A DNA stretch of 64,000 bases from a virus, in the IMG/VR virus record IMGVR_UViG_3300026512_000003, positions 1-64,000 of that record. The stretch is one strand, 5' to 3'. The notes beneath the pieces are model-generated. The model made no database searches, was not told the DNA's origin, and worked only from the letters and a program-made list of their open reading frames with translations. The position numbers and the translations under genes are program-made. Shown piece by piece: positions 5,473 through 60,454 of the stretch (position 1 is the first letter of the stretch; each line of letters starts with the position of its first letter).

Positions 5473-7254
5473 ATGGCATCAACTTTCAGTGGAAAGCTTT
5501 ACGATAGAAAATTCATGACAAGATATAATCAGCTAAGTAGTGTGTATGCTGATATCTTACCAAATGATATTCGTGAAGCAATTCAGTGGTCACAATTCAT
5601 TATTGCGAATGTGCCAAAAGCAGCTACTGCATTAGATAAGCTGTCATCGGTAGCAATTACATCTTTACAATACCAAACTTCAGACTTAACAGAGGCATCG
5701 GGAGTAGATGCTAAGTCTTGGAAGAATATTATGGAAGATAAATTAGAAATAGAAGAAAAAGTTAAAGAAATTGGGTTTAACTTTCTTCTCAATGGGAACT
5801 CATTTACATCAGTATATTTTCCTATACAAAGAAGTATGAGATGCTTAAAGTGTAAGCAGTCATCTTCTCAAATACATTTTGATGGAAAGATAACACTTAA
5901 GCCATCAATAGAACGACTTGAAACAGAGAAGAATAAAAAAAAGAAAGAAATGCTTGTGTTTAAAGGTATTTGCCCACATTGTAAAACAAGTAGCATGTTT
6001 AAAGCAGAAGACATTGTTATAAAAGATGTTAGCCGAATCAACATAGTGTCTTGGCCCGTATTTAATATGAGTTTTATTGAAGATACAGTAACAGGAAGAG
6101 CTACTTATTACTACAAGATGCCAAAATCAGAGGAAAAGCTGATAAAAGATGGCTATAACGATATGATATTTCACCAACCATTAGATATTATTGAAGCTGC
6201 TGTTCGTGGGACATCTGTTAAGTTTGATAATAACAAGATACTACACACAAGACGAAAGAAGATGAATGGGACAAACTCTAAATGGGGTATGCCTCTTCTT
6301 TTATCTGCTATCCCTGAAATGATTTCACTTTTACTTCTTAGAAAAGGGAATGAGCGTATATTGTCGGATATGATATTTCCTCTTAGGGGTGTTACTCCTC
6401 GTTCTACTGGTGCTGACGGTCAAGCAATGTATAATTTTATTAGTGGAACAGAGTTTTCTGCGAAAATTGAGAAGTTACTTCTTAGTCATAAAACAAATCC
6501 AACAAGTATTAAATACTTCCCTATACCGATAGACCCAGTAACGGCATTTGGAGAAGGAAAGAGCCTTAATTTATCAGGTGAGATAGATGAGCTAACCACA
6601 ATGATTATGACATCTATAGGGGTCCCTATAGAATTTGTTACAGGTGGACTTGGATACAGTGCTGCGGGAGCTTCAATTAGAATACTTGAAAACCAATTAA
6701 CAGACTTGTCTGGGACAATGGAAAATATAGCTAATTTTGTTGCACAGCAGGTAGCATCGTATATAGGAAAAGAACCTGTTCGCATCAAGTTTGTTCCAAT
6801 TAAACTTGTTGATGATATGACAGAAAAACAATTGCTTCTTAGTCTTTATCAAAATCAAAAAATCTCTGATCATACGATTGCGTCAATGTTTAAATTGGAT
6901 GCTAAGACAGAGAGCGATAGACTTGTTGAAGAGAGTAAAACTAGTGCTCGTGGACAAATGGAAATTCAATCTTATCAACAAGAGCTTAATCAAGACCTCG
7001 AAGAGAAAGCAAAACAAGAAGCAATGCTTTCTCAAAGCTCTACAGAACAAGTTAATCAACAAGCGATTATGCAAGAAGCTGATCAAATGGCTCAACAACT
7101 TGCTCAAATGGAAGCTGGACAAAGACGCTCTGAAATGGATAGATTGCAAAAAGATAATTGGCTATTGTATGTTGCTACTAAAGAGCGTATGGAATTTAAT
7201 GGTCGCAAGGATGCAACAGCAGCAGCACAGCAAGCACAACAGGAACAGCAATAA
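5473..7254 (+). CDS. Portal protein with inserted zinc ribbon
   Basis: The 593-aa protein has the length and layout of a tailed-phage portal, the dodecameric ring at the capsid vertex through which DNA is pumped. Supporting features are an alpha/beta N-terminal half, a central stretch with a GVPIEFVTGGLGYSAAGAS segment (near residue 385) typical of portal stem/wing regions, and a long Gln-rich coiled C-terminal helix. Residues C124, C127, C167 and C170 form two CxxC pairs, a zinc-ribbon insertion not usual in portals. GGAGTGAG precedes the ATG and a promoter-like box lies at 5439. The terminase is about 47 kb away, an unusual separation. Assigned from pattern, not from an alignment. Confidence 0.7.
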   Translation: MASTFSGKLYDRKFMTRYNQLSSVYADILPNDIREAIQWSQFIIANVPKAATALDKLSSVAITSLQYQTSDLTEASGVDAKSWKNIMEDKLEIEEKVKEIGFNFLLNGNSFTSVYFPIQRSMRCLKCKQSSSQIHFDGKITLKPSIERLETEKNKKKKEMLVFKGICPHCKTSSMFKAEDIVIKDVSRINIVSWPVFNMSFIEDTVTGRATYYYKMPKSEEKLIKDGYNDMIFHQPLDIIEAAVRGTSVKFDNNKILHTRRKKMNGTNSKWGMPLLLSAIPEMISLLLLRKGNERILSDMIFPLRGVTPRSTGADGQAMYNFISGTEFSAKIEKLLLSHKTNPTSIKYFPIPIDPVTAFGEGKSLNLSGEIDELTTMIMTSIGVPIEFVTGGLGYSAAGASIRILENQLTDLSGTMENIANFVAQQVASYIGKEPVRIKFVPIKLVDDMTEKQLLLSLYQNQKISDHTIASMFKLDAKTESDRLVEESKTSARGQMEIQSYQQELNQDLEEKAKQEAMLSQSSTEQVNQQAIMQEADQMAQQLAQMEAGQRRSEMDRLQKDNWLLYVATKERMEFNGRKDATAAAQQAQQEQQ

Positions 7255-7291: not shown

Positions 7292-8032
7292 ATGAGTGTT
7301 AAAATTGGCACAGCAGTAAGTAATGGAAATATAGAGTTCTACGGAAAACACAATGTGTCTTCGTTTTTGTTTGATTTAGATGAATTCGCAATATTTAATA
7401 CTTTTTCAGAATCATGTATTTTGAATATGTCGATACCTTCTGATTTTAGCATTGATAATTCTGGTGATATTCCAATGATAAGTGGTTCTCGAGAGCTTCA
7501 TTATCATACTCATCCAGCAATTCGGATTCCTAGAGCAACATTAAATGATTTACCTGTATTTACTATAGGGTTAAATGTGAAAATTGAAGACTGGGACAAA
7601 GCAAATGGAGATATTATATCAAACTATAATTGTGATGAACAAACACTTGTTGGTGTAGGGTTGACAAAAAAGAATACTTTAACTGCTACATATTGGAACA
7701 GAAGAAAAATAGACAGTCCAAAGTCGGTAAAATATGTTTTAAAGAAAAATTTATTTAGGTTTGATCTTGTAGTAGACAAAGTAAAAGGAGCAATACACTT
7801 ATACATTGATAGTGTGCTTGTGGCTAGTCTAAGTGATGAATGTATAAAAAGCCCTCTTGATGTTGATCCTAGGATTTTAGGAGAGGATTGTGCTTGTTGG
7901 AATCGAGATAGACTTGCGGCTGGAGCAAAAGTAGGAATGTTTACTGTATATAAGGGTGAGATGAGCGAGCAAAATATGGAGAATTTGGCGAACTTTGGTG
8001 CACTTAACTTAGAAGAACTATGTAAAAATTGA
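7292..8032 (+). CDS. Lectin-like (LamG/concanavalin-type) virion protein, 246 aa
   Basis: AAGGAACAAGT precedes the ATG. The C-terminal two-thirds reads like a concanavalin A-like jelly roll, including FRFDLVVDKVKGAIHLYIDS near residue 150 and the closing strand AGAKVGMFTVYKGEM. Such domains bind sugars. The N-terminus carries an IEFYGKH motif that is shared with the protein at 10479 (TRFYGKH) and, more weakly, that at 11784 (VKFCSQH). A capsid-decorating or tail-attached sugar binder is likely. No signal peptide. Confidence 0.55.
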   Translation: MSVKIGTAVSNGNIEFYGKHNVSSFLFDLDEFAIFNTFSESCILNMSIPSDFSIDNSGDIPMISGSRELHYHTHPAIRIPRATLNDLPVFTIGLNVKIEDWDKANGDIISNYNCDEQTLVGVGLTKKNTLTATYWNRRKIDSPKSVKYVLKKNLFRFDLVVDKVKGAIHLYIDSVLVASLSDECIKSPLDVDPRILGEDCACWNRDRLAAGAKVGMFTVYKGEMSEQNMENLANFGALNLEELCKN

Positions 8033-8113
8033 CATTTTTTTGGTGAAATTTAATGTAAGAAAAAGGTAAAAATTTTACAGGACTTATATATGATAGTATA
8101 TAAGAAAATAGAA

Positions 8114-8119
8114 TATAAT
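8114..8119 (+). promoter_or_regulatory. TATAAT -10 element
   Basis: Exact TATAAT, 13 nt upstream of the ATG at 8133, in an otherwise unassigned 100-nt gap. The very short leader makes the call tentative. Confidence 0.4.
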
Positions 8120-8132
8120 AGGAATAATAACA

Positions 8133-9206
8133 ATGAGTTTAATCAGCAATGTTTTAAATAAAACAAAGAATGCTTTCATAAGAAAAGAAGTAATTCCCTC
8201 TAAAGTAGAGGGAGTAGCAAGAAAAGCTGTTGAATCAGCAGGTGGAGTAGTGGGAAATACTAGCCTCTTGCCAAGACCAGCTGGTGCATTTGTTAAATTT
8301 CACAATCCAAGATTTAAAAACAATCCTGCTATGAAGAAAGCATACCGAAGCCATGGATTAACGAGGTATAACATAAGTGTAGCAGGGAATATTGCAGATT
8401 TTGGAGCTAACCAAATACCAGATCTAAAACACATTTCAAAAAAGATGACCAAGAGAGAGCATAATATTACAAATGGGATAGCTGGGCTTCATGAGACAAG
8501 AGAACTAAGACTTTCGAAAAGAGTTCCTCAAAGTAATTTTGGTCAAAGTTTTGGACATATTTCTGGAACAGGTGTTTTAGGAGCAGAACATAATGCCCTA
8601 GTTGGAAAAACATTTGCTGATGAAGTAAAAGGAAAACCGAAAGCATATTTTACCGCAACAAGAGCTCATTTTGCACCTATTAGACATGGAAAAGAAACAG
8701 AACTTATAAGAAGCTTTCTTCCAAGACCAAACAAAGCGTTAGCTAGTGGGAAAAAAGTGAAACCTCTCCGTAGCGAAACACAACCTCAGTATAATTCTTT
8801 TGATTTCAACAATGATTTTAAATATGGAAGAAGTGGCAGATTTAACCGTAAACAATTATTGAGAGCGATGAGCAAAGAACTTGGTATAGATACAAGTAAG
8901 ATGTCAACCAAAGAAATAAAAGAAGCATTGGCTAATTATAAAAAGAAAGGAGTGATAGAAGCAGGATCAAAAATTAAATCGCATAAGAGATCACTATCTA
9001 GGCCAGAGAAGATGCTTAAAGCAATAAATAAAAAAGCTGTTTTGAAAGCAAAAAAAGAAGGGTCTTATAAAAATTTGGAAAGAACTTCTCAAGGAATGAA
9101 AGAGATAGAGTCTGCACCGGGAGCTAAAAAGAGAAAAAGAGGTGCGTGGGCTCGAGAATTTGATAAGGTTCAAAGAGATAATCATCTCTTAAATGATTTT
9201 ACATAA
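8133..9206 (+). CDS. Large basic virion-type protein, 357 aa
   Basis: Family not recognised. It is strongly basic (Lys/Arg-rich throughout) and lacks cysteine and membrane segments. A central block contains GLHETRELRLSKR and SFGHISGTGVLGAEHN, a His/Glu-containing pattern that might bind metal. The C-terminus is a Lys-rich helix (MLKAINKKAVLKAKK) with one INKKA match to the hydrophobic-x-Lys-x-Ala motif. Its basic composition and place between the portal and other virion genes suggest a DNA-contacting internal head protein; this is inference. Confidence 0.6.
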   Translation: MSLISNVLNKTKNAFIRKEVIPSKVEGVARKAVESAGGVVGNTSLLPRPAGAFVKFHNPRFKNNPAMKKAYRSHGLTRYNISVAGNIADFGANQIPDLKHISKKMTKREHNITNGIAGLHETRELRLSKRVPQSNFGQSFGHISGTGVLGAEHNALVGKTFADEVKGKPKAYFTATRAHFAPIRHGKETELIRSFLPRPNKALASGKKVKPLRSETQPQYNSFDFNNDFKYGRSGRFNRKQLLRAMSKELGIDTSKMSTKEIKEALANYKKKGVIEAGSKIKSHKRSLSRPEKMLKAINKKAVLKAKKEGSYKNLERTSQGMKEIESAPGAKKRKRGAWAREFDKVQRDNHLLNDFT

Positions 9207-9215
9207 AGAGAAGAC

Positions 9216-9884
9216 ATGATGGCTAGACTAAACACTAAAACTAACAAGAACTCTTTTACAAGAGTGTTAAACAAAAACACTTCCTTGGAAAAAACTGCAG
9301 GTTTAGGTAGTATGTTGAAAAGATTTGTTAACAAGACCACAGTTAAGGCTGGCACAGAGACTATCGACGAGGGGAAAAGAGCCCTGTTAAGACCGATAAA
9401 ACGCTCAGTCACTGGCATAGCTGATGCTATGAAAACAGGAGCTACAGTGGGAGCTAAAACTACTCCTGCTATAGGGGGCGTTGTGACAGCCACAAAAAAG
9501 CTTCCGATGTCACGACGAGCATTTCTTAGGACTTCAGCAGTTGGAGGGGCTAAAGCTGCTGTATCGGCTGTGCCAATGATGAATAGAAGTGTATACAATG
9601 CCTTCACATTAGGAACAGATAGTGCTCCAGGAATTACAACATTTATTGACGGTGCGATGAAAGCAGAGAACGGATTAAAGAAGACGCTACAGCTAAGAGA
9701 TTATCGAATGCAAACTGTTGCTGGTGTTCCAAAAGAAGTAGCCCTTGCAAAAACATATGGAAAGATGAAATTAAGAAAAGCAAGAAGACCATCAGTTATA
9801 ATGAACAATATTACTTCCCTTGTAGACGGCAACATGCTACAAAAAGTAAAACCGATGTATAATATTACTCAAATGATAAGGTAG
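9216..9884 (+). CDS. Basic virion-type protein with N-terminal LEKTA motif, 222 aa
   Basis: Starts at ATGATG after AGAGAAG, 9 nt beyond the previous stop. It is very basic and Ala/Gly-rich. LEKTA at residues 24-28 lies at the same position as FVKEA (24-28) in the major capsid protein, suggesting a removed N-terminal propeptide. Near residues 98-110 it reads MSRRAFLRTSAVGG, which matches a twin-arginine export consensus but is internal and so probably coincidental. Function unknown; an internal or ejected head protein is plausible. Confidence 0.6.
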   Translation: MMARLNTKTNKNSFTRVLNKNTSLEKTAGLGSMLKRFVNKTTVKAGTETIDEGKRALLRPIKRSVTGIADAMKTGATVGAKTTPAIGGVVTATKKLPMSRRAFLRTSAVGGAKAAVSAVPMMNRSVYNAFTLGTDSAPGITTFIDGAMKAENGLKKTLQLRDYRMQTVAGVPKEVALAKTYGKMKLRKARRPSVIMNNITSLVDGNMLQKVKPMYNITQMIR

Positions 9885-9935
9885 TGGCTAACTGATTGTT
9901 GTTAGGCGAAGAAAGTTAAAAAGGAGAGATGAAAA

Positions 9936-10373
9936 ATGGAAGAGATTTTAAAAGCATGGATAGATAATGGTTATTCTTTTTTGCAAAAACATACAATAAA
10001 GTTTTGGAATCTGAATAATATTGATTTTTGGGAAGTGTATGAAGACGAAGAAATGTGGAAACAGGTAGAGGATGGTTATTTTGAAAGTACAAATCATTTA
10101 GACCGTTCAAAATCTGGAATGAAAATAAACCTCGGCAAAATAAAGAGTTTGTCTTTTGACTGGAATGTGGATAGTGAAGAGTATTACGATTCTTTTAATG
10201 TCTATATAAACGGAAACTGGATGTTCGGAGAGAGTGGAACTCGTGCAGGGACATATAATAAAGAATATAGTGGTGAAAAAGATATAATTTTAGCTATTGA
10301 GTACACAAAAGATGGATCTGTTAGCGAAGGTGAAGATGTGGCATGGATTAAAAATATCAAGGTTTATTGGTAG
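9936..10373 (+). CDS. Small beta-sandwich (carbohydrate-binding-like) protein, 145 aa
   Basis: AAAAAGGAGAG precedes the ATG. The run SFDWNVDSEEYYDSFNVYI, followed by YINGNW, a Gly/Thr turn and the closing KDGSVSEGEDVAWI, resembles a beta-sandwich module found in surface adhesins and carbohydrate-binding proteins (pattern YDxFxVYIDG ... KDGSVSxGED.AWI). It occupies nearly the whole protein. It is likely a virion surface or receptor-contact protein, lying among other lectin-like genes. Confidence 0.5.
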   Translation: MEEILKAWIDNGYSFLQKHTIKFWNLNNIDFWEVYEDEEMWKQVEDGYFESTNHLDRSKSGMKINLGKIKSLSFDWNVDSEEYYDSFNVYINGNWMFGESGTRAGTYNKEYSGEKDIILAIEYTKDGSVSEGEDVAWIKNIKVYW

Positions 10374-10387
10374 TAAAATGAAGACAG

Positions 10388-10419
10388 GGTACTATTGTAA
10401 AATTGTTAATTGGTACTAT
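10388..10419 (+). repeat. Direct repeat GGTACTAT upstream of a promoter
   Basis: GGTACTAT occurs at 10388-10395 and again at 10412-10419, 24 bp apart, just before the TATAAT at 10427. The placement suggests an operator, though the repeat is short. Confidence 0.35.
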
Positions 10420-10426
10420 AGTTAAG

Positions 10427-10432
10427 TATAAT
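10427..10432 (+). promoter_or_regulatory. TATAAT -10 element
   Basis: Exact TATAAT, 46 nt before the next ATG, immediately downstream of the GGTACTAT pair. Confidence 0.5.
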
Positions 10433-10478
10433 GTTAGTAGCAAAATAAAAAGTAAACAGAAAAGTAAGGAGTTATAAG

Positions 10479-11183
10479 ATGACTGAAAGGGAAATAATAC
10501 AATCAAATACAAGATTTTATGGAAAGCATATTTGTGGAAGTGTTGATAATGAAGCAATGGGAATTGTATTGTTCCCACGAGGAAATACTAGTTATACAGA
10601 AAAAAGTATGTTTCCAGATGAAGATATAGAAGTAATGCACTTTATGAATCTATCAGGTAGAACTGTAATTCCCACTCTAGAAGATTGGAACATGGAGTTA
10701 CAAAATTTAGGAATGTTTGATTTTGTAGCATATTACTACTCACTTAGTGGTTACAGAGCAAATTTTACTTTAGAATTATATGAAGGGAATCGCTTATTAG
10801 GAACATTAGAATCTCATAAAGATACTAGTACTTGGTTAAGAGGAGACTACTCAACATTTTCTTTTAAAAAGCCTGACGGAACACTTATATTAGAAATAGG
10901 AGCAAATTATTTTAGTGGGTATAGGTATGGGAACGGTGAGGTAAGAGGGTCGTTAGATATGAGTAAAAGAGGGGAAATTACAATATACCCTGCTTCATAT
11001 AGTAGAAGCCCATATTATTCAAGCTCGAACATACATTTTGAAGAGATAGATCATCCTTTTACTAAGGTAAGTAGAATAAAGCTAGTTTATGCTCATTTGC
11101 AAGCTTATTATAGTAATTCTCCAGCTACAATGAAATTTGCTCAGTTTGGAACAATATTCAAAGGTGAAAAGAGGGGCTTATAA
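10479..11183 (+). CDS. Virion surface protein with FYGKH N-terminal motif, 234 aa
   Basis: TAAGGAGTTATAAG precedes the ATG. The protein is beta-rich, with many Tyr and Ser, and no cysteine pair or membrane segment. RFYGKH near residue 13 matches IEFYGKH in the lectin-like protein at 7292. The rest does not align by eye. A shared docking motif on otherwise different beta-sandwich proteins would fit several decoration proteins attaching to one virion site. Confidence 0.5.
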   Translation: MTEREIIQSNTRFYGKHICGSVDNEAMGIVLFPRGNTSYTEKSMFPDEDIEVMHFMNLSGRTVIPTLEDWNMELQNLGMFDFVAYYYSLSGYRANFTLELYEGNRLLGTLESHKDTSTWLRGDYSTFSFKKPDGTLILEIGANYFSGYRYGNGEVRGSLDMSKRGEITIYPASYSRSPYYSSSNIHFEEIDHPFTKVSRIKLVYAHLQAYYSNSPATMKFAQFGTIFKGEKRGL

Positions 11184-11213
11184 TGAAAAGTAAAAAAACA
11201 CTAAAACAAGGAG

Positions 11214-11783
11214 ATGGAAATGACAGATGTGTATGGTAACAGAATTCAAGATAACAATGATAAATTAGTGGCAGGTGGGGCAGGACTTGCTACTGCTGGA
11301 GCAGGTTCTCATACTATAGGTAGAAAACTTAATGAGATAAGTAAAAATCAATTAGGGGATGCGAACGCCCAAGCCTTTGCAGCGAAGCATAATAAAAAGA
11401 AGATGCTTAAAGAGTCAAACAGGGCTAAAGCATTGTCAGATAGCTATGCAAAAGCAGGCGAAAAACAAAGAAGTTGGTTTCATCAGCTTGTGGATAGGGC
11501 AAAAAGTCCGTTCTCTGAAGATGCTAAAAAGCGTTCTATAAAAGATGCAAAAATAAAAGAACTTAAGCAAAACTTAGGAACTAAAATAGACAAAAGGTCT
11601 GCTAAGGTGGATAAACTAAAAAAAGCAGTTACAGATGCCACTACAAGTGAGAAAAGGCTAGCTAAAGGAGCAGCTAAAAATGTAGCGTGGGGAAACAAGT
11701 TAAGATTAACTGGTGAAGCAGGACTTCTTCTGGGAGCTGGAGCTGCTGGTTATGGCTTGTATAACAAAATGAAAGGACAATAA
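11214..11783 (+). CDS. Basic Ala/Lys-rich protein with hydrophobic ends, 189 aa
   Basis: AACAAGGAGATGGAA precedes the ATG. There is a Gly/Ala-rich hydrophobic segment near residues 20-33 (AGGAGLATAGAG) and another at the C-terminus (GLLLGAGAAGYGLY), separated by a strongly basic helical coiled-coil region. The architecture resembles the proteins at 4348 and 19010 and that of ejection proteins that cross membranes, but no family is recognised. The next gene follows with no gap. Confidence 0.6.
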   Translation: MEMTDVYGNRIQDNNDKLVAGGAGLATAGAGSHTIGRKLNEISKNQLGDANAQAFAAKHNKKKMLKESNRAKALSDSYAKAGEKQRSWFHQLVDRAKSPFSEDAKKRSIKDAKIKELKQNLGTKIDKRSAKVDKLKKAVTDATTSEKRLAKGAAKNVAWGNKLRLTGEAGLLLGAGAAGYGLYNKMKGQ

Positions 11784-12767
11784 ATGGCACAAAGAGAAAC
11801 AAAGGCTCTAGCTTTTTCAAATGTTAAGTTTTGTTCACAACATAAGATAGAAAAAGAGCCTAGTACATATTTTAGTTGGAGACCTAGCAGGTGGGTGTTT
11901 CCTTTGGATGGTTCTGTGTGGAAGGCACACGGAGCAACATCTGTTGATAATGGGTTTGCTTTTGCGATAGATGGGCAGATTAGGCAACGATTACCGATTA
12001 TGCAACAAAAAGAGACCCATTTTGGGGCAACTATTCAAAGGATAGATTCTAATAAAGATGCTTGGTTCGGAATGATTTTAGGTGGAATGTGGGGTGGGGT
12101 AAAAGCTATTTCTTTTGTAGAGTTTTCCAACTCTGATGCAATTACTAGAATAGAAGGGACAGATGTTAGTAAGGATCCTATATCTATAGAGGGTGAGTTA
12201 GTGTATTTAGAAATAAGAGTTCGTGTAGGGGAAGAAAAACTTACACAATGGTTTATTAATGGGGAAAAAGTTTACGAAATAAATCAGCTTAGATATTGGC
12301 CATTTTTTGATTTGCTCAAGCTTGAGGGAGAAAATATAAAAGTGACAGATATCTTTATGGATATCATAAGAGAACCCGTGGACATCAACACTATGTCCTC
12401 ACAGAAACATTACAAAACTACAAATATGAAACCAGCCACTTATAGTGGAAACACAATAACTGTTGAAGATAGATTTTTGATATCTGACCTTTTCCCAGTC
12501 AAGTCGGCGGATGCTTTCATAAAATTAACAACTAGAGAGGGTGAGCCAATAGGAAATATGCATGTATATTTATATGGGGTAGGTGACTATACTTCTATAG
12601 GGGCTGATGGTTTAAATTTTAATATCTCAACAACAATACAAAGTCGAATACTTATGCCTCTTATATATGTGTGGTCTCATGGCGATGGGTTTACTATGGA
12701 ATTGGAGCTAAGCAATATAGAGTATTACTCTGAAGAGGACTATATGGCATGCCTAAAAACAAATTAG
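11784..12767 (+). CDS. Lectin-like virion protein, 327 aa
   Basis: Starts directly after the preceding stop, with AAAGGACAA as the binding site. The N-terminal 190 residues read as a concanavalin-like sandwich (KETHFGATIQRIDSNKDAWF, TQWFINGEKVYEIN). A second beta-rich domain follows from about residue 205. The N-terminal VKFCSQH is a weak match to the FYGKH motif of its neighbours. Probably a sugar-binding decoration or tail-tip protein. Its 3' end overlaps the VRR-NUC gene by 19 nt. Confidence 0.5.
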   Translation: MAQRETKALAFSNVKFCSQHKIEKEPSTYFSWRPSRWVFPLDGSVWKAHGATSVDNGFAFAIDGQIRQRLPIMQQKETHFGATIQRIDSNKDAWFGMILGGMWGGVKAISFVEFSNSDAITRIEGTDVSKDPISIEGELVYLEIRVRVGEEKLTQWFINGEKVYEINQLRYWPFFDLLKLEGENIKVTDIFMDIIREPVDINTMSSQKHYKTTNMKPATYSGNTITVEDRFLISDLFPVKSADAFIKLTTREGEPIGNMHVYLYGVGDYTSIGADGLNFNISTTIQSRILMPLIYVWSHGDGFTMELELSNIEYYSEEDYMACLKTN

Positions 12768-16643: not shown

Positions 16644-18071
16644 ATGCAAATTAAGATTAATTGTCATGTAGAGATGTCAGATATTACTGAAGCAGAAGCG
16701 TTAACGAAAGCTACTGAAAAAGTGGAAAGTTATGATGCTCTAGTCGAAGAAATAGCTGGAGAAGAACTGGTTACCAAGCTATACTATATAGTACCTAAAC
16801 TTGGAAAAATATTGGTTGTTGTTTCAGAAGAAGATAGAGTTATATTGGGTGTAGATAGCACAGTTCTTGCAAATACTTTGATCTCTGAATATCCTCTAGA
16901 GAAGCTTCCTTCACAGGTTGTTGCTTATCGTGAGCTTATCATTAAAGTTGGAAACGAAATAGATATGGATTCAATTATGAATGCAGCTCAATTTATTGCA
17001 GACGATACTGCATCAAAAGTTATGCCAGCTAGAATGCCTGTTGTTAAAGTGATCAACTATAACAATACCGATGAGTCTGTTTTGGTTGTTCCTAGTGTTT
17101 TTGGAGGTAATGTTTTTTCTAGTGTATCTGGTATTGTAAACAGTGGTGATGCAGAGGCAGGAAATGAAGTTATTGCTAGTTCAGGTATTATTGCTATTAC
17201 TTGTCCTACTGATGGTAGTGTAGTTGCAGGAGATACTTATAACGGTTATTTAGTTGTAGATGGAGATACTTTAAAAACTATGATTAGCAATGGTGATGAT
17301 GTAACGAATGTTTGTACTTCTTTAATAACTGATATGCGTGAGATTGCAAAAAATGTAGAAGACTTCAATCAAGATATTTCTCGTTGGGATGTTAGCAATG
17401 TTACAGATATGTATGATATGTTTTTTGGTGCAAAAGCTTTCAATCAGGATATCTCAAGTTGGGATGTTGGTAATGCTACGAGTTTGAGTTTTATGTTTTC
17501 TAATGCATCAGCTTTCAACCAAGATATCTCAAATTGGGATGTTTCTAATGTTACAGATATGGCTGGTGTATTTTCTGGTGCATCAGCTTTCAATCAAGAT
17601 ATCTCAAGTTGGAATATTGGTAATGCTACGAGTTTGAGATATATGTTTCATAATGCAAAAGCTTTCGACCAGGATATTTCAAACTGGGATGTTTCTAATG
17701 TTACGCGTATAGAAGATATGTTTTCTGGTGCAAAAGCTTTCAATCAAGATATCTCAAGCTGGGATGTTGGTAATGCTACGCAAATGCAAAATATGTTTTC
17801 TGGTGCATCAGTTTTCAACCAGGATATCTCAAGTTGGGATGTTAGTAATGTTACAAATATGAATGAGATGTTTAATAATGCATCAGCTTTCAACCAAGAT
17901 ATTTCAAGCTGGAATGTTGGTAATGTTACGCGTATGGAAAAGATGTTTAATAATGCATCAGCTTTCGACCAGGATATTTCAAGCTGGGATGTCAGCAATG
18001 TTACAAGGTCAACTTACTTTGCGCTTAGTTCTCCTATAGATGGAACAAGCAAAGAACCAAACTTTTCATAA
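16644..18071 (+). CDS. Adhesin with DUF285/BspA-type repeats, paralogue 2, 475 aa
   Basis: AAAAGGATGC precedes the ATG. Residues 1-190 are the paralogue of the previous gene's N-terminal domain. A short bridge follows, then nine 25-residue repeats (residues 241-465) of the DUF285 family, consensus AFNQDISSWDVSNVTxMxxM. Such repeats occur in bacterial surface adhesins such as BspA and bind host proteins or cell surfaces. The repeats alternate between WDVSNVT and WDVGNAT forms, a 50-residue superperiod. Probable role: receptor-binding tail fibre tip. The near-identical DNA repeats could change copy number by slippage. Confidence 0.75.
   Translation: MQIKINCHVEMSDITEAEALTKATEKVESYDALVEEIAGEELVTKLYYIVPKLGKILVVVSEEDRVILGVDSTVLANTLISEYPLEKLPSQVVAYRELIIKVGNEIDMDSIMNAAQFIADDTASKVMPARMPVVKVINYNNTDESVLVVPSVFGGNVFSSVSGIVNSGDAEAGNEVIASSGIIAITCPTDGSVVAGDTYNGYLVVDGDTLKTMISNGDDVTNVCTSLITDMREIAKNVEDFNQDISRWDVSNVTDMYDMFFGAKAFNQDISSWDVGNATSLSFMFSNASAFNQDISNWDVSNVTDMAGVFSGASAFNQDISSWNIGNATSLRYMFHNAKAFDQDISNWDVSNVTRIEDMFSGAKAFNQDISSWDVGNATQMQNMFSGASVFNQDISSWDVSNVTNMNEMFNNASAFNQDISSWNVGNVTRMEKMFNNASAFDQDISSWDVSNVTRSTYFALSSPIDGTSKEPNFS
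17364..18038 (+). repeat. Nine tandem 75-bp coding repeats
   Basis: Repeat starts are at 17364, 17439, 17514, 17589, 17664, 17739, 17814, 17889 and 17964, an exact 75-bp period. Each encodes an FNQDIS...WD[V/I].N.T unit. The last is divergent at its end. Confidence 0.85.
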
Positions 18072-20277: not shown

Positions 20278-23200
20278 ATGACTAAGTTAGACAGAACTCC
20301 TGATAAAATGAATGAAGCATTAAAAGACACAGTACTTAATACTTATGAAGGTAGAGAAGTAAAGGGAAAACATAAGACTCTTGTCTATAGTAATGTTCAC
20401 GCTACACCTACAGATAATGGTTATTCTTCAACAAAAAAAGCAGTAGACACAAAAGCCACTCTTTCTCAAAAATTTAAAGCTGATCTAACATTAAAAAGTT
20501 CTCTAGATGGACGAGTTCTCGAACATAAAAAAGGTGTGTTTATTGGTGATATTCCTATTTATTCTAAGAAAGGTGGTTTTGTAGTAGATGGGAACACCTA
20601 TAATATTCCTACCCAAATACGATTAAAACCATCAGCGTATACATCAGAAAAAGCCAATGGTGATGTAGAAACAATGATGAATTTAAAGAACGGGAAGGGA
20701 ATGAAACTTATTTCCCCTCAAGATAAAAATAAAATTGAATTAAAAATAGGGACTAAACAGTTTAATCCACTTGATGTTGCATATGCAATGGGAGCTAATG
20801 AAAAAGAAGCAAAGAAAGTTTTAGGTGACAAAGTTTTTGGTTTGTTACAATCAACATCTTCTCCTCATGAGTCAACTTTAAAATTAGCAACAGCATTAGG
20901 TATTTCTGAGCCAAACAACAATACTCCAATAAGCGAAGTAAAGGCTCAAATTAAAGATTACTTTCAAAAAACACAAATAGATCCACAAGCAACAAAAGAA
21001 ACTCTTGGTATGCCATTTTCTTCAATGAATCATTTAGCAATGCTTCGTTCTATTAAGAAAAATATAGGTGTGAAAACGGGGTATGAAAAACAGGACGATA
21101 AAGAAAATCTAATGTTTAAGAATATTATATCTCCAGAAAAATTAATTGGTGAGGGAGTTAATAAAAGACTAGCTCAGAGTGAAGCCAAAATGAAAAGTGG
21201 ACTCAATAATGCTTTTGCAAAAAATACAATAGGTGAAATAGTTACTGAACCTACTTTGAAAAAAGCAGCAAAGAGTTTTCTTACCACTAGTGCCATTTCA
21301 AGAATGCCTGAGGAATACAATCCTCTTCAAATGCTTCAAGGTAGTAATGATGTCACACCTTTGGGTGAAGGTGGAATTAGCGATACAAGAATGATTAATC
21401 AGAATGTAAGATCTTTACATATGTCTCAGTTGGGTTTTATAGATCCAATAAAGTCTCCAGAAGGTGCAAATACTGGAGTTACTTTAAGTCTAACACATGG
21501 TGCTCATGTTGATAGTCATGGAAATGCTGCAATTGAAGTTATAAATAACAAAACAGGAAAAAAAGAGATAAAAACTGTAGGAGATCTTTGGAATAAAAAA
21601 ATAGCTTTTCCTGATGTAAAAAAAGATGGATCAGTAGGAATGAGACATAAAGATAAAATTATTGTTGGCAACATAAGAAATGCTGACTATACTCTTGCTC
21701 ACTCCGAAAAGACATTTGGACCTGCTATGAATTCTTTAGGGGTTATAAGTTCAAACGATCCAACGAGAAATCTTATGGCATCGAAACACTCAACTCAAGC
21801 GTTGCCTTTAGTAAATGGGGATTATACTTCTGTGTCATTAGAGGGCGAAAACGGAAAAAGTATGTCTGAAAATCTTGCAAAAAGGCATTTACCACTTGCT
21901 GATATAAACGGTAAAATAACAAATGTAGATTCTAAGAATGGGTTTATTCATATTTCAAACGAAAATGGTGAACATAGCAAGATAGAGTATGCTAAAGATA
22001 AGATTCAATTAAACACGAAAACATACCTTCAACACACTCCTGTTGTAAAAGTTGGTGATACTGTAAAAAAAGGACAACATCTTGCAGATTCTAACTTTAC
22101 AAAAGATGGAAAGCTTGCTCTTGGTAAAAATTTAAGAACATCATGGATGGTGTATCCTGGAACAAGAAATGATGCTTTTATTTTATCAGAAAGTGGGGCA
22201 AAAAAACTTACTTCAGTACATTCTAAAAAATTTGATATTTCGACAAAAGAAGGCACTATTTATGATAAGAAAAAATTTGCAGCTCTTTTTCCAGAAGTAG
22301 CTCAAAAGATAGATATTCATAAATATGATGACAAAGGTTTGTTAAAAAAAGGAATGACTGTGTCTAAGGATGAACCAATATCCTTAGGCTTTAGAAAGAT
22401 GGATAGTGAGGAAGTAAAATTTGCCAATGATAAAGTAAAAAAGCTTATGTATGGCGGAATGGCCCCTGTTATCCAGAGATGGAAGGGTGACGATGTTGGA
22501 ACAATAAAAGAGATTGTTACAAAAGGGGCAAATACTAGAGTTGTATCGGAATATACTTCACCTATGAAGGTTGGTGACAAGCTAGCGGGAAGAAGTGGGA
22601 ATAAGGGTATTGTTTCGGCTATTCTTCCAGAAAAAGATATGCCTCGCGATGAAGAGGGAAATCATATAGAACTTCTCATGGGTGGAGCAGGAGTTACTTC
22701 GAGACAGAATCCGGCACAAATAATAGAGGCTTCGCTTACGGAAACAGCATTGAAAACAGGGAAAAACTATGTGTTACCTCATAACCCTGATGTGGATATG
22801 GATGTTTTTGCTAAACAGGAGGCAAAGAAAAATAATGTAAAATTGTATCATAAAATGTATGATCCACTTAGAAAAAAACATCTAGGGAAAGATGTATTTG
22901 TTGCAAATTACAATGTAATGAAATTATTTAAACAAGGTGATGCAACATATTCTGCAATTGGTCATGGTGGAGTTGGGGCAGATAATCAACCAAAAAAAGG
23001 TGGAAAAGAATCTCCTTCTACAATCTCAAACATGGAAATATCAGCACTGTTAGCACATGATGCAAAAGATTTCTTGAAAGAATCTTATAGTATTAGATCT
23101 CAGCACAATAAAGACTGGTTTAGAGCTTTTGAAGCGGGAGAGTCATTACCAGCTCCTGAATTAAAAACAGGAAAAGAGAATTTTCATAAAATGCTGTCTC

Positions 23201-24513
23201 AACTAAGAGTAAAGACTGTTAGTGATAAAAATCATATGCATTTATTGCCTATGACAGATAGAGATGTAACAAAAGTAAGTACAGGTGCTGTAACTGAGCC
23301 TTATGGGCTTAAGAGGAATACTATGACACCTGTGAAGGGTGGTTTTTATGATACTAAACTATTTGGTGGTACAGGAACGGGTGTTGCTCATATAGACCTT
23401 GGGACAAAAGTGGTCAACCCTTTGTATAAAGGTACTGTTGCTTCTCTATTAGGCACATCTGAAAAAAATTTAGATGCTAGAATTTCTAACGAGGGAGTAA
23501 ATGGAATTTATTCAGAAGTTGGAAACATAAAACCAAAAAACAAGATTAAAGAACTAAAATCAGAAATTTCAAGAACAAAAGATAATGGAAAAATAAATAG
23601 ATTGTTTAGCACTATCAAAGCAATAAGAAAAACAGATGAAAATACAAAAGATATAAGAGATGCTATGTTTATGTCCAAGGTTCCTGTACTTTCTACAGCA
23701 CTTAGACCTGTGCAGAAATTACCTTCAGGAAGCATTGTAGAACATGATATAAATATGCATTATGCAAATATAATTAGAAGTAGTAATATTCTAAAGGAGG
23801 CTAAGAAAGAAAAAGCACCAATTCATATTCAGAATCACCTTCAAGATGAGCTTCAAAAACATGTTGGTGCAATGTATGGAACAAATGAAAGCCCTGACCC
23901 AAAAATGAAAGATAAAGATGTAAAAAGTGTTATGAATATTTTAGCAGGTGATAACCCAAAAACTTCATACTGGCATCAAAAAGTAATGAGACAACAAGTG
24001 TTTGGTTCTGGTAGAGCAGTAATCCTTCCAAAAATAAAATCACTAGGAATGGATGAAATAGAGATTCCAAAATATGTAGCTTGGAAAATGTTTGAACCTC
24101 ATGTGACAAGAAAAATGTCTCAAATGGGTATTGACTCTAATACATCAAAAGATATGATAGAGAAAAAGAGTGATACAGCTAACGCTGTGTTACATCAAGT
24201 GATGAAAGAGGTTCCTGTTGTGATAAATAGAGCTCCTTCTCTTCACAAGCATAATATGACAGGACACTATGCGAAAATAAGTGCAGGTAATGCTATGCAT
24301 ATATCTCCTATTATCGAAAATGCTCAAAATGCAGACTACGATGGGGATCAAATGGGTATTCATATTCCTTTTACCCATGCAGCAATAAAAGATGTAAAAG
24401 ATAAGCTTATGGCATCAAAACAAATAATGACGAATTCAAATAAAAATAAAGTTATAATGGGGATAGATTTGGACCCGTTTATAGGATTTTATGAAGGTAG
24501 TAGAAAGAAGTAG
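20278..24513 (+). CDS. RNA polymerase beta plus beta-prime N-terminal fusion
   Basis: A single 1411-aa chain. The first part follows the bacterial beta subunit: KSPEGANTG (392-400) matches the PIETPEGPNIG region; VGDKLAGRSGNKG (765-777) matches the nucleotide-binding segment with both conserved lysines (K768, K776); a GHGGVG...KGG...NMEISALLAHDA stretch matches the beta C-terminus. Then comes beta-prime: PVKGGFYDTKLFGG, GHID-like HIDLGTKVVNP, LRPVQKLPSG, GSGRAVI, NRAPSLHKHN, and the metal-binding NADYDGDQM with Asp 1353, 1355 and 1357 (Tyr replaces the usual Phe). The N-terminal beta-prime zinc ribbon is absent. The chain stops about 55 residues after the catalytic loop, so bridge helix, trigger loop and jaw are missing and must be encoded elsewhere. 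It transcribes phage DNA, perhaps with the sigma-like protein at 59834. A promoter box follows the gene. Confidence 0.92.
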   Translation: MTKLDRTPDKMNEALKDTVLNTYEGREVKGKHKTLVYSNVHATPTDNGYSSTKKAVDTKATLSQKFKADLTLKSSLDGRVLEHKKGVFIGDIPIYSKKGGFVVDGNTYNIPTQIRLKPSAYTSEKANGDVETMMNLKNGKGMKLISPQDKNKIELKIGTKQFNPLDVAYAMGANEKEAKKVLGDKVFGLLQSTSSPHESTLKLATALGISEPNNNTPISEVKAQIKDYFQKTQIDPQATKETLGMPFSSMNHLAMLRSIKKNIGVKTGYEKQDDKENLMFKNIISPEKLIGEGVNKRLAQSEAKMKSGLNNAFAKNTIGEIVTEPTLKKAAKSFLTTSAISRMPEEYNPLQMLQGSNDVTPLGEGGISDTRMINQNVRSLHMSQLGFIDPIKSPEGANTGVTLSLTHGAHVDSHGNAAIEVINNKTGKKEIKTVGDLWNKKIAFPDVKKDGSVGMRHKDKIIVGNIRNADYTLAHSEKTFGPAMNSLGVISSNDPTRNLMASKHSTQALPLVNGDYTSVSLEGENGKSMSENLAKRHLPLADINGKITNVDSKNGFIHISNENGEHSKIEYAKDKIQLNTKTYLQHTPVVKVGDTVKKGQHLADSNFTKDGKLALGKNLRTSWMVYPGTRNDAFILSESGAKKLTSVHSKKFDISTKEGTIYDKKKFAALFPEVAQKIDIHKYDDKGLLKKGMTVSKDEPISLGFRKMDSEEVKFANDKVKKLMYGGMAPVIQRWKGDDVGTIKEIVTKGANTRVVSEYTSPMKVGDKLAGRSGNKGIVSAILPEKDMPRDEEGNHIELLMGGAGVTSRQNPAQIIEASLTETALKTGKNYVLPHNPDVDMDVFAKQEAKKNNVKLYHKMYDPLRKKHLGKDVFVANYNVMKLFKQGDATYSAIGHGGVGADNQPKKGGKESPSTISNMEISALLAHDAKDFLKESYSIRSQHNKDWFRAFEAGESLPAPELKTGKENFHKMLSQLRVKTVSDKNHMHLLPMTDRDVTKVSTGAVTEPYGLKRNTMTPVKGGFYDTKLFGGTGTGVAHIDLGTKVVNPLYKGTVASLLGTSEKNLDARISNEGVNGIYSEVGNIKPKNKIKELKSEISRTKDNGKINRLFSTIKAIRKTDENTKDIRDAMFMSKVPVLSTALRPVQKLPSGSIVEHDINMHYANIIRSSNILKEAKKEKAPIHIQNHLQDELQKHVGAMYGTNESPDPKMKDKDVKSVMNILAGDNPKTSYWHQKVMRQQVFGSGRAVILPKIKSLGMDEIEIPKYVAWKMFEPHVTRKMSQMGIDSNTSKDMIEKKSDTANAVLHQVMKEVPVVINRAPSLHKHNMTGHYAKISAGNAMHISPIIENAQNADYDGDQMGIHIPFTHAAIKDVKDKLMASKQIMTNSNKNKVIMGIDLDPFIGFYEGSRKK

Positions 24514-54386: not shown

Positions 54387-55997
54387 ATGAAAACAAACCC
54401 TAGAGTTTCAAAATTTATGTTAGACTACGCTTTTATTGACGGAAGAAAGCTTGATTTTGAAAAATATGAAGCATTTAAGCTTCCTTACGAGGTTGATGAG
54501 AGGCAGGTTTTGCTTACAGCAGGAAGACAGGTTGGTAAGACAGTTTATCTAGCTGGAAAACTTGCTGTGAAATCTGTTTTAAAAAAAGGTTCGAGAGCGT
54601 TATATGTTGCACCATTGGAGTCTCAGACAAAGACCTTCTCAAAAACAAAACTTCAGAAAATAATAGATGATACAAAACAGTTAAAAGCAGCATATACTGG
54701 AAAAGGTACACAAAATGATGTGTTCTTTAAGCAAAACATTTTAGGAAGCTATATCGAGCTTACTTATGCTTCTGTCACAGGGATGGACCCTGTCAGGGTT
54801 AGGGGTAAGTCTGCAGATGATTTATTTATAGATGAAGCACAAGATATTGATTATGACATTTTGCCAGCAATACAAGAAGTTACAACATCTGCGGAAGACC
54901 CAACTGTGACATATGCCGGTACAGCAAAAAGCCTTGATAATACAACAGGAGTAATCTGGGATTTGTCTACAAAATTGGAAAGAATGGTTTATTGTAAACA
55001 TTGTGGACATTGGAATATTTTAGACAGAAGAAACATATCAAAAGAAGGTCTTGTCTGCAATAGAATGAAATGTCGAAGACCTATTTCTGTTAGGGATGCA
55101 AAATGGATGATTACGGGTGATAAGCACGCTACATATCAAGCTTTCAGAATACCTCAAATTTGTCTTCCAATGCATACTGAATCGAAAAGTCATTGGAATT
55201 CTGTATGGAACAAATATGTAGATTATCCTCCAGAGATTTTTAATCAAGAAATACTGGGAATTCCAAGTGGAGCAGGAGATAGACTCTTAAATCTTGAAAA
55301 ACTAAAAGCTCTTTGCACAGGTGGAAGAATGACAGTGTATCCAGATGAAGGTTTTTTCCAAAAATATCATGGTCTTTTCATGGGGATAGACTGGACAGGT
55401 GACGGAGTTCTTCTTAAATCAAGAACTGTTGCTACTGTGATTGGCCATAGAAAAGATGGAAAGCTTGAATTGGTATGGGGGAAAATCTTTCCACCAGGAA
55501 GCGTTAATGAGCAGCCTAAAGAGCTTATTAAAATTGCTAACCTTTTTAGATGCTCTGTTGTAGGAGCCGATGCTGGTATGGGTATGATGCAAAATGGGGA
55601 AATAACTCAAGCATTAGGAATAAGTAGGTTTAGAGCTATACAATATATTGCGGGGAATACTCCTTTTACTTTTGACTTTGAAAACAATACTATTAAATTG
55701 AACAAAACCCAAGCAATTGATACAGTTATGATGTTGTTCTTAAAAAAGTTTAAACCTAAAAATTTTGGGGGATCTGCAAGAAATTACTCTGGTCATGGGG
55801 TATTAGAGATTGTATTTCCAGAATATGATGATATGAGACTTTTTATACAAGATATCTTAGCTGAATTTGAACAGGAAACTGCAAAACACACTAAAATATG
55901 GACTCATAGCAACATGAAGCCCGACGATACTCTTCATGCAATAGTTTTTGGTTTTTATGCATATATGCATCATCGTAATACTGTGAGCTTTTACTAG
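54387..55997 (+). CDS. terL: Large terminase subunit (packaging ATPase-nuclease)
   Basis: 536 aa, normal for the family. The N-terminal ATPase has Walker A GRQVGKT (46-52), Walker B LFIDEAQ (146-152) with E150, and the coupling motif YAGTAKS. Four Cys (YCKHCGHW, VCNRMKC) near residue 200 form a zinc-binding insertion. The C-terminal RNase H-like nuclease shows acidic residues D335 (GIDWTGDG), D395 (GADAG) and D513/D514 (PDDTLHA). It pumps DNA into the procapsid through the portal and cuts the concatemer. The GRQVGKT form recalls T4 gp17. The small subunit is not recognised here. Confidence 0.93.
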   Translation: MKTNPRVSKFMLDYAFIDGRKLDFEKYEAFKLPYEVDERQVLLTAGRQVGKTVYLAGKLAVKSVLKKGSRALYVAPLESQTKTFSKTKLQKIIDDTKQLKAAYTGKGTQNDVFFKQNILGSYIELTYASVTGMDPVRVRGKSADDLFIDEAQDIDYDILPAIQEVTTSAEDPTVTYAGTAKSLDNTTGVIWDLSTKLERMVYCKHCGHWNILDRRNISKEGLVCNRMKCRRPISVRDAKWMITGDKHATYQAFRIPQICLPMHTESKSHWNSVWNKYVDYPPEIFNQEILGIPSGAGDRLLNLEKLKALCTGGRMTVYPDEGFFQKYHGLFMGIDWTGDGVLLKSRTVATVIGHRKDGKLELVWGKIFPPGSVNEQPKELIKIANLFRCSVVGADAGMGMMQNGEITQALGISRFRAIQYIAGNTPFTFDFENNTIKLNKTQAIDTVMMLFLKKFKPKNFGGSARNYSGHGVLEIVFPEYDDMRLFIQDILAEFEQETAKHTKIWTHSNMKPDDTLHAIVFGFYAYMHHRNTVSFY

Positions 55998-56848: not shown

Positions 56849-57826
56849 ATGCAACCAGCAGTATCAACAACAGTTAGTTCAAACCAATTTGTTTCAAGAT
56901 TATTCGATGACGAAGGTTTTGTAAAAGAAGCAGCAGATGCTCTATCACTTTTTATCCAAGATAAAATTCGTGAAAAAGGATTTGCTCGTAAAATAGTTAA
57001 ACCTACTCCTGTTTCAGCAAAAGATTTAGTGCCTACAGAGCATACTGATCAACCTGCAATCATGGTAGAAAGAGATGTGGATGCTCGTGCAATGACAGTT
57101 CCTCTTCGTGGTCGTGGTGAATTCAGATATCATGAAACAGACAGATATATGGTTTATTTTGAAAAAGTTGTTTCTGAAAAAATTAGAAAATCAAAAATGG
57201 AAATGATGACAGTTAAAACTGATTATAAAAAACTTTTCCAAGATAGAATTTCTGAAGCAATGTACGAAGTAGAAGACTTAACAGTTATGGGTGGTGTAAA
57301 AAGTGCTCTTGCTAATGAGGAAGCTGCATATAAAGAAGCAAATGGTGGTGATTTAGCTTCTCAAGGAAATAAAACTTTCTCAGCTCAGACAGTTTACTTT
57401 GGAGAAGGTGAAACATTAGACAAATCGAATCTAGTATTCCTATTCCAACTTCCAACAAGAAATAGAATTAGTAATAAAACAGTTCTATTAACAGAAACAC
57501 TTCTACAAGAGTTAATGCATATGACTATGCAAGAAGTCGGTGATAGTGTTGTTTCTAAATTCTGGCAAGATGGTGTTGATAATATTTCAGAGTTCTGGAA
57601 TAAACAAGTAGTAACAACAATTAAATCACACATCATTAAAAATAATGAAATCTACACATTTGCTTCTCCAGAGATGTATGGACATTTCTTTATCTTACAA
57701 GACCACACTTCGTATTTCGAAATTGATCGAGACATGATGACTATGGATAGTGAAGCATATATTGCTCATGCAATTGGAAACACTAAAGGTGTTTACAAAG
57801 GTGTGTTTACAGATATCGCTGAATAG
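56849..57826 (+). CDS. Major capsid protein (HK97 fold)
   Basis: TAAGGAGTAAAT precedes the ATG. 325 aa, in the usual range. The C-terminal YTFASPEMYGHFFI...TSYFEIDRDMMTMDSEAYIAHAIGNTKGV stretch looks like the P-domain and terminal strands of HK97-fold capsid proteins. FVKEA at residues 24-28 falls in a Ser/Gln-rich N-terminal region. If the motif is a maturation cleavage site, the N-terminal ~28 residues would be removed. Flanked by decoration-like and scaffold-like genes. Confidence 0.8.
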   Translation: MQPAVSTTVSSNQFVSRLFDDEGFVKEAADALSLFIQDKIREKGFARKIVKPTPVSAKDLVPTEHTDQPAIMVERDVDARAMTVPLRGRGEFRYHETDRYMVYFEKVVSEKIRKSKMEMMTVKTDYKKLFQDRISEAMYEVEDLTVMGGVKSALANEEAAYKEANGGDLASQGNKTFSAQTVYFGEGETLDKSNLVFLFQLPTRNRISNKTVLLTETLLQELMHMTMQEVGDSVVSKFWQDGVDNISEFWNKQVVTTIKSHIIKNNEIYTFASPEMYGHFFILQDHTSYFEIDRDMMTMDSEAYIAHAIGNTKGVYKGVFTDIAE

Positions 57827-59547: not shown

Positions 59548-59859
59548 ATGGCAACTGTACCATCAAATGAACCAGCATTAAATACAGAAGGTTTTTCATC
59601 TGTATCTGGAGCAATCACATTACAAAAACAAATTCAAGCAGTTAGAAAAGCAGATCCTATTTTTGCGATAGGCGATGAGAACCTAAAGGGTTATGTTGCT
59701 TTAAAAATGTATGATCAAACAACAGCATCTGTTATTAACTCGGAAGATCTTGACCCAACAGACTTCGACTTATTTAGAGGAGAAAGTTACGCAAGTGGCC
59801 AACCATATGTAACAAACGAGGCAACTTGGGCTAGTGGTGGAGACCTTGCAGACTTATAA
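59548..59859 (+). CDS. Small hypothetical protein, 103 aa
   Basis: TAAAGGAATGAAAA precedes the ATG. Mixed polar, Ala/Thr-rich. Its 3' end overlaps the sigma-like gene by 26 nt. No family recognised; head- or connector-associated by position. Confidence 0.6.
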   Translation: MATVPSNEPALNTEGFSSVSGAITLQKQIQAVRKADPIFAIGDENLKGYVALKMYDQTTASVINSEDLDPTDFDLFRGESYASGQPYVTNEATWASGGDLADL

Positions 59860-60454
59860 TAGCGATGGCACTATAGAACACTTTAAGAAAAAATTCTCTT
59901 CTTCTTTACCACCCTCTGAGCTTGAATATCTTTTGTTCAAGGGGTTTAATAATGCAAAAGCTACTTTTGACGCTTCAAAAGGGGCAGGATTTGCAACCCA
60001 TTTATCTAATCATTTACAAAGACTTTACAGGGACGCAGAGTCAACAAAAAGCTCATTAAAGACAAGCGAGGGTTCTTTATTAAAAGACAATAAAGTTCTC
60101 CGTGCGAAAGATGAACTATATATGCGTTTTGGGACTGAGCCTTCAAATGAAGAAATCGCTAAACATTTAAAAATGCCTCTGAAGGACATTTCAAAGTCAC
60201 TACGAAATTCAGGAAGACAAAATGTTAAAGTTAAAGAGTATAAAAGCAAGCAAATACAAATAGATGTACCTACTCTTTTACCTTCAATTAAAAAAGATGA
60301 GCAAAAAATAGCAGATACAATTGCTAAAGGCATGAACCTGCAGCAAAGTCTTAAGCATACAGGTATGTCTAAGAGTGAGTTTTATCGACAGCAAGGCACA
60401 TTTAAAGATAAGCTTAGGCAATCATACTTACGAACAGCCGAAAGGGAGAGTTAA
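59834..60454 (+). CDS. Sigma-70-like factor, 206 aa
   Basis: It starts at GTG 59834; a TTG at 59846 preceded by GGTGGAG is a good alternative. Region-2-like sequence EYLLFKGFNNAKATFDASKGAGFATHLSNHL (residues 30-60) matches the sigma pattern of a Gly-x-x-x-Ala helix, then FD.SKG.FxT. It is followed by a region-3-like RFGTEPSNEEIAKHLKMPLKDI, and the end has a helix-turn-helix-like LQQSLKHTGMSKSEFYRQ. It is about the size of T4 gp55. It lies in the late structural cluster and may direct the phage RNA polymerase or the host enzyme to late promoters. The N-terminal portion of region 2 is shorter than usual. Confidence 0.75.
   Translation: MVETLQTYNSDGTIEHFKKKFSSSLPPSELEYLLFKGFNNAKATFDASKGAGFATHLSNHLQRLYRDAESTKSSLKTSEGSLLKDNKVLRAKDELYMRFGTEPSNEEIAKHLKMPLKDISKSLRNSGRQNVKVKEYKSKQIQIDVPTLLPSIKKDEQKIADTIAKGMNLQQSLKHTGMSKSEFYRQQGTFKDKLRQSYLRTAERES

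What the first reader, a model, noticed from the sequence alone, without database searches (positions are those of the whole stretch)
20278..24513. Fused phage RNA polymerase beta and partial beta-prime
One 1411-aa chain holds most beta signature segments and the N-terminal beta-prime part with the NADYDGDQM metal site, then stops before the bridge helix and trigger loop. Phages such as phiKZ split both large subunits into two proteins, and metagenomic tailed-phage lineages encode multi-subunit polymerases. Here the beta C-terminus and beta-prime N-terminus are joined while the beta-prime C-terminus is a separate, unseen piece. The beta-prime zinc ribbon is absent and the canonical Phe in NADFDGD is Tyr. 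The gene sits inside the structural region rather than in an early cluster, so the enzyme could be packaged in the virion.
Basis: partly seen in the sequence, partly recalled or inferred. Interest (0 to 1): 0.85.

Follow-up and report, generated by a model that had tools for sequence, protein, structure and literature searches.

The report
Phage RNA polymerase with re-cut subunits
This phage gene encodes, in one chain, a nearly whole RNA polymerase beta subunit joined to the catalytic front half of beta-prime, with the missing back half 64 kb away in the same genome; relatives are widespread in uncultured phages, and in one cultured relative the pieces are among the most abundant proteins of the virus particle.

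Summary
Confirmed and extended. ORF 20278-24513 (+) is a near-complete beta joined by a short linker to the beta-prime N part, lacking only the zinc ribbon. It carries the beta lysines (GDK..GNKG) and NADYDGD.

It is not a singleton or a misassembly. Salmonella phage Arash and Vibrio phage D69 have the same two-gene layout. Two IMG/VR scans gave 140 distinct relatives; none is divided at the cellular beta|beta-prime boundary. They are single full-length chains (~2,000-2,200 aa), beta-beta'N plus separate beta'C (this window), or a further-cut form. The beta-beta'N|beta'C forms make one clade, probably re-cut from a fused ancestor.

Virion packaging is supported indirectly: in published Arash virion mass spectrometry the fused chain has the most spectra, with beta'C and a sigma factor near-equimolar by length-normalised counts, and a portal gene lies directly upstream in about two thirds of loci. 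The window encodes a homologue of that sigma (59834-60454). Tyr for Phe in NADFDGD is not unique (Saccharibacteria). New variant of a known kind.

The parts
20278..24513 (+). beta-beta'N fusion gene, 1411 aa
   Evidence: ORF; Pfam; PDB phmmer; fold
20278..23232 (+). beta part, residues 1-985, near-complete beta
   Evidence: PDB alignment to bacterial beta 84-986; junction alignment
22579..22605 (+). beta barrel lysines K768 and K776 in GDKLAGRSGNKG
   Evidence: sequence; invariant in Arash and D69 alignment
23233..24510 (+). beta-prime N part, residues 986-1411: true beta-prime N-terminus without zinc ribbon, through the barrel
   Evidence: alignment with cellular RpoC; Pfam Rpb1_1 and Rpb1_2
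24328..24348 (+). metal site NADYDGD (residues 1351-1357)
   Evidence: sequence; alignments
59834..60454 (+). sigma-70-like protein, 206 aa, homologous to Arash virion sigma gp10; likely promoter-specificity subunit
   Evidence: Sigma70_r3 E 1e-9, FliA/WhiG family E 2e-6, phmmer from Arash gp10 E 2e-6 among 427 ORFs
5473..7254 (+). portal protein; adjacent to the polymerase gene in most relatives, 13 kb upstream here
   Evidence: phmmer from Arash gp204 E 4e-60; neighbourhood count
54387..55997 (+). terminase large subunit
   Evidence: PF05876, PF03237, phrog_675
56849..57826 (+). major capsid protein
   Evidence: phmmer from Arash gp226 E 2e-36, phrog_2522, NF042927

Best explanation
The gene encodes the large chain of a catalytically competent two-barrel DNA-dependent RNA polymerase. 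The core is made of two polypeptides: beta-beta'N (this ORF, both double-psi barrels and the metal site) and beta'C (bridge helix, trigger loop, zinc region; 88304-90046 minus in the same genome). They assemble in trans without a phage alpha subunit, and the sigma-like protein at 59834-60454 directs them to phage promoters. By homology with Arash the holoenzyme is packaged in the virion and probably enters with the DNA to transcribe early genes. SHOWN: homology, domain order, presence of both halves, sigma homology, recurrence in relatives. SHOWN IN A RELATIVE: presence in virions. INFERRED: assembly, activity, promoter choice, ejection, early transcription. The layout most likely arose when beta and beta' fused into one chain and that chain was later cut at a new place, after the beta' barrel.
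For: Both subunits in one chain; fold model. beta'C in the same genome with Pfam Rpb1_5 and PDB matches over 35-448; bridge helix, trigger-loop His and Cys4 aligned. Domains recur across 140 distinct phage chains. Same layout in Arash gp206/gp216 and D69. Arash virions: gp206 3516 spectra (the most), gp216 1210, sigma gp10 467; per residue 2.31: 2.0: 2.0, portal 1.51, MCP 4.34; the other sigma, gp196, has no occurrence in the paper's text or table (PMC10585845). Portal gene within 1.5 kb upstream in 105 of 154 loci. No alpha-type RNA_pol_L domain in the contig. Trees.
Against: No biochemical test of any member of the clade is known to me. Arash virion preparations held 116 proteins including metabolic enzymes, and the authors allow carry-over as an explanation. 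Here the polymerase gene is 13 kb from the portal. The window sigma-like protein is degenerate: region 3 is clear, regions 2 and 4 are weak. The trigger loop has lost the Arg and Phe found before the catalytic His in bacteria. The contig may be incomplete.
Confidence: 0.75

Rival explanations
1. It is an active polymerase, but a non-virion enzyme made during infection for middle or late genes; its presence in Arash particles is carry-over.
For: Arash authors raise carry-over themselves, and RNR, primase and ligases are also in the table. phiKZ-like phages have both virion and non-virion enzymes (PMC7598289).
Against: The fused chain has the most spectra of all proteins, with beta'C and one of the two sigmas in near-equal molar amounts; conserved placement directly after the portal gene; only one polymerase set in this contig.
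Confidence: 0.18
2. The chain is mainly a structural or DNA-handling head protein that has lost polymerase activity.
For: High abundance in Arash virions; Tyr in the metal motif and altered trigger loop.
Against: The Asp residues of the metal site, the barrel lysines, bridge helix, trigger-loop His and zinc cysteines are conserved across the clade; Saccharibacteria carry the same Tyr in rpoC.
Confidence: 0.06
3. Artefact: two genes joined, or beta' truncated, by misassembly or frameshift.
For: Metagenomic contig.
Against: Same joint and same end in close and distant relatives from independent assemblies and in cultured phages; the missing half is a clean ORF elsewhere.
Confidence: 0.01

Closest known systems
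Salmonella phage Arash RNA polymerase (gp206 + gp216 + sigma gp10; PMC10585845)
   Same: Same beta-beta'N fusion, separate beta'C, no zinc ribbon, DYDGD, sigma-like protein, portal/MCP/TerL homologues; virion proteins by mass spectrometry
   Different: 25-30% identity; beta'C 4.8 kb downstream on the same strand there, 64 kb away on the other strand here; fusion is not mentioned in the paper
mReC phages (Weinheimer and Aylward 2020, PMC7481178)
   Same: Tailed phages with a polymerase close enough to cellular profiles to align, NADxDGD, deep branch outside the bacterial rows used
   Different: Paper treats beta and beta' as two subunits and speaks of fusion only for crAssphage; MCP family PF07068 not found here; whether its contigs are the same could not be checked
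phiKZ/AR9-type jumbo phage RNAPs (PMC7598289)
   Same: beta' cut after the barrel; no alpha; a virion enzyme
   Different: There beta is cut in two, no sigma homologue, two polymerase sets; here beta is whole and joined to beta'N, with a sigma-like protein and one set
Fused RpoB-RpoC of the Helicobacter/Wolbachia kind (NCBIfam PRK09603, PRK14844; host names from general knowledge)
   Same: beta C-terminus joined to beta' N-terminus
   Different: Whole beta' in the chain there
Cyanobacterial/plastid gamma + beta''
   Same: beta' cut after the barrel (PMC7598289)
   Different: beta is a separate chain there
crAss-like phage gp66 and YonO single-chain polymerases
   Same: Both barrels in one chain; gp66 is a virion enzyme
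   Different: Much more divergent, crAssphage not matched by cellular profiles (PMC7481178); no separate beta'C

Membership tests
Two-barrel multisubunit RNA polymerase | beta barrel lysines and beta' NADxDGD metal site | tested here: met
Two-barrel multisubunit RNA polymerase | bridge helix and trigger loop encoded by the same genome | tested here: met
   P0002 at 88304-90046 minus
Two-barrel multisubunit RNA polymerase | RNA synthesis | not testable with these tools
   needs protein
mReC phages | polymerase clade apart from cellular ones | tested here: met
   100/100 split from six bacterial rows incl. Saccharibacteria; no archaeal rows used
mReC phages | MCP of PF07068 | tested here: not met
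   no Pfam match for window MCP at E 0.1; Arash MCP gives PF05065 at E 0.004, below cut-off
mReC phages | TerL of PF03237 | tested here: met
   E 2e-5, over cut-off, though PF05876 scores higher
phiKZ/AR9-type RNAP | beta cut into two or more chains | tested here: not met
   beta whole in one ORF
phiKZ/AR9-type RNAP | beta' cut after the barrel | tested here: met
   chain ends ~50 residues after NADYDGD
phiKZ/AR9-type RNAP | no sigma homologue | tested here: not met
   sigma-like 59834-60454
phiKZ/AR9-type RNAP | two polymerase sets per genome | tested here: not met
   one Rpb2_6, one Rpb1_2, one Rpb1_5 match in 165 kb; contig may be incomplete
Fused RpoBC (Helicobacter type) | whole beta' in the same chain | tested here: not met
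   ends before the bridge helix
Virion RNA polymerase | present in purified virions and ejected | not testable with these tools
   only the relative Arash has data; ejection untested

The most novel reading that the evidence does not exclude
A large tailed-phage clade descends from an enzyme in which beta and beta' had become one ~2,000-aa chain that still matches cellular profiles. In one branch that chain was cut at a new place (after the beta' barrel), giving a two-gene enzyme whose gene boundary no longer matches the subunit boundary, and in a sub-branch it was cut yet again. The enzyme travels in the virion as a sigma-bearing holoenzyme without a phage alpha subunit.
Probability: 0.55. 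Interest if true: 0.75.

Novelty: new variant of a known kind. Interest (0 to 1): 0.6.

Why it matters
Gene boundaries in RNA polymerase are usually treated as subunit boundaries. Here a whole phage clade has moved that boundary, and forms with one, two and three chains survive side by side, so the order of fusion and re-cutting can be tested. It also offers a cultivable model (Arash) for a virion polymerase built from cellular-like parts with a sigma factor but no alpha homologue found in the window's contig, a simpler holoenzyme than phiKZ's. Databases name the pieces 'beta' or 'hypothetical', so the layout is easily missed in annotation and in concatenated beta/beta' trees.

Tried and rejected
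Single-protein query in viral contigs found nothing; the three-row alignment was needed. Sigma70_r2 found nothing and Sigma70_r4 only a sub-threshold hit; that hit's ORF proved to be a region-3 sigma-like protein. PF04983 (Rpb1_3) found nothing: that region is missing or too divergent at the cut. An origin from Saccharibacteria, suggested by shared DYDGD, a Lys in the trigger loop and lost zinc-ribbon cysteines, was rejected: Saccharibacteria group with other bacteria at 100. Two loci first read as separate beta and beta' (L136, L160) are one frame broken by TGA. One clade of single chains was rejected (p 2e-7) only with L185 in the set; without it the question is open. Paper searches for a described beta-beta'N fusion found none, but most subscription papers are not held.

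Full report
OBSERVATION. The window is bases 1-64000 of a 165,427-base IMG/VR contig. The ORF at 20278-24513 (+) encodes 1411 aa. Pfam gives, in order, Rpb2 domains 3 and 6 and Rpb1 domains 1 and 2. Against the PDB, residues 84-986 align with bacterial beta (E 7e-47) and about 1064-1409 with beta-prime (E 6e-34). NCBIfam's top model is a fused beta/beta'. A fold of residues 330-1411 with 31 homologues has mean pLDDT 82.5, and its best PDB matches are beta subunits.

ANATOMY. A joint alignment with Acinetobacter, Enterococcus and Saccharibacteria RpoB+RpoC shows that beta ends at about residue 985 and that the true N-terminus of beta' follows after a few residues. The stretch 'GGFYDTKLFGG...GVAHIDLG' matches RpoC before and after the zinc ribbon, which is cleanly missing in every phage row shown. 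The chain ends about 50 residues after NADYDGD.

THE MISSING HALF. PF04998 finds one match in the contig: a 580-aa ORF at 88304-90046 minus. It aligns to RpoC (E 7e-30) from before the bridge helix onward, with the DCGT...C...C..C zinc cysteines, the bridge helix and a trigger loop that keeps the His. beta'C is therefore about 64 kb from beta-beta'N and on the other strand. A long separation also holds in the nearest relatives, roughly 25-69 kb by the coordinates. In 41 other loci it lies 0.6-4.4 kb downstream.

RELATIVES. tblastn in cultured phages found Salmonella phage Arash (96% covered, 25.5% identity) and Vibrio phages D69, D148 and D181. Arash gp206 (1525 aa) and gp216 (606 aa), and D69 with 1527 and 609 aa, have the same layout. 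In D181 a homing endonuclease gene interrupts the fused ORF. Two IMG/VR scans gave 157 loci, 140 distinct: 63 single chains (beta-beta'N-beta'C), 40 beta-beta'N plus beta'C, 27 beta-beta'N with no beta'C in the fetched flank or truncated by a contig end, 6 with beta plus the first ~100 residues of beta' and the rest of beta' in further genes, 2 single chains broken by TGA, 2 fragments. None has the cellular beta|beta' boundary. The scans started from fused queries, so more distant phages with separate subunits (such as YerA41 and Carin-5) lie outside this set.

EVOLUTION. Trees of beta plus beta'N put all these phage chains apart from bacteria (100/100), the split forms in one clade (100/100 and 99/98), and the further-cut forms once inside it. 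Single chains fall outside, one (L185) as sister to all others (100/100), which makes a single chain the simplest ancestor. An AU test rejects one clade of single chains (p 2e-7). Without L185 they may be one clade (support 9), so the direction is likely, not proven. All share the beta-beta' joint.

CATALYTIC RESIDUES. DYDGD is the rule in the split forms and DFDGD in single chains. The residue before the trigger-loop His is Lys or once Arg in all readable split forms and Phe in most single chains. Saccharibacteria show DYDGD in 79 of 79 loci and the Lys in 59 of 78, so Tyr is compatible with a cellular enzyme.

PROMOTER RECOGNITION. The contig has no match to the alpha-type RNA_pol_L domain. 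It does encode a sigma-like protein at 59834-60454, about 2 kb after the capsid gene, with region 3 at E 1e-9 and homology to Arash gp10. A second sigma type (Arash gp196) lies upstream of the polymerase in the fetched flank of about 30 relatives.

VIRION. The Arash paper reports gp206 as the protein with the most spectra in virions (3516; 128 unique peptides), gp216 1210, sigma gp10 467 (PMC10585845). Dividing by length gives 2.31: 2.0: 2.0, against 1.51 for portal and 4.34 for capsid protein: close to an equimolar holoenzyme, with the caveat that spectral counts are rough. The authors call the chains beta and beta' and do not mention fusion. Across the clade a portal gene lies within 1.5 kb upstream of the polymerase in 105 of 154 loci. 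Packaging in this phage is an inference by homology and gene order.

LITERATURE. mReC phages (PMC7481178) are the nearest described group; that paper uses beta and beta' as two markers, requires NADxDGD, and mentions fusion only for crAssphage. Jumbo phage enzymes share the beta' cut with cyanobacteria but have a divided beta and no sigma (PMC7598289; PMC7824862). I found no paper describing this layout; the library is incomplete.

VERDICT. Real, widespread, and a new variant of phage multisubunit RNA polymerase rather than a new kind of system.

Noticed in passing
L037 9950-15841, L043 9956-15976; same insert size in L026, L039: About 500-aa insert directly after NADYDGD in the fused chain, with a LAGLIDADG domain (L037, L043) and an intein splicing domain (L037): an intein in the polymerase active site. 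L170 (3596-aa single chain) carries LAGLIDADG and intein domains too.
   Followed up: partly
L160 frame 6001-12027; L136 at 8092: Single-chain polymerase genes with in-frame TGA; in L160 one TGA sits where relatives have Trp, suggesting TGA is read as Trp in that phage.
   Followed up: partly
Arash gp7 (L011 7425-8105) and six IMG/VR records (G013, G014, G016, G017, G018, G020): A 220-290-aa protein resembling the zinc region of beta'C (about residues 223-311), a paralogous fragment that is in Arash virions (202 spectra).
   Followed up: partly
Trigger loop of beta'C, e.g. genome 88304-90046 minus; Saccharibacteria loci L199-L277: Residue before the trigger-loop His is Lys in nearly all split phage forms and in 59 of 78 Saccharibacteria, Phe in single chains and other bacteria; DYDGD likewise: a parallel change in two lineages.
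   Followed up: partly
L021, L040, L045, between beta-beta'N and beta'C: A 360-529-aa ORF whose motifs recall archaeo-eukaryotic primase and LigD-like phosphoesterase sits in the gap between the two polymerase genes; not run against profiles.
   Followed up: no
window 16644-18071: 475-aa protein with three DUF285 stretches (E 6e-98), a repeat family named from Mycoplasma.
   Followed up: no
L098 5956-11470 (Vibrio phage D181): The fused polymerase ORF is interrupted by a homing endonuclease gene, a possible snapshot of how such genes get cut.
   Followed up: no
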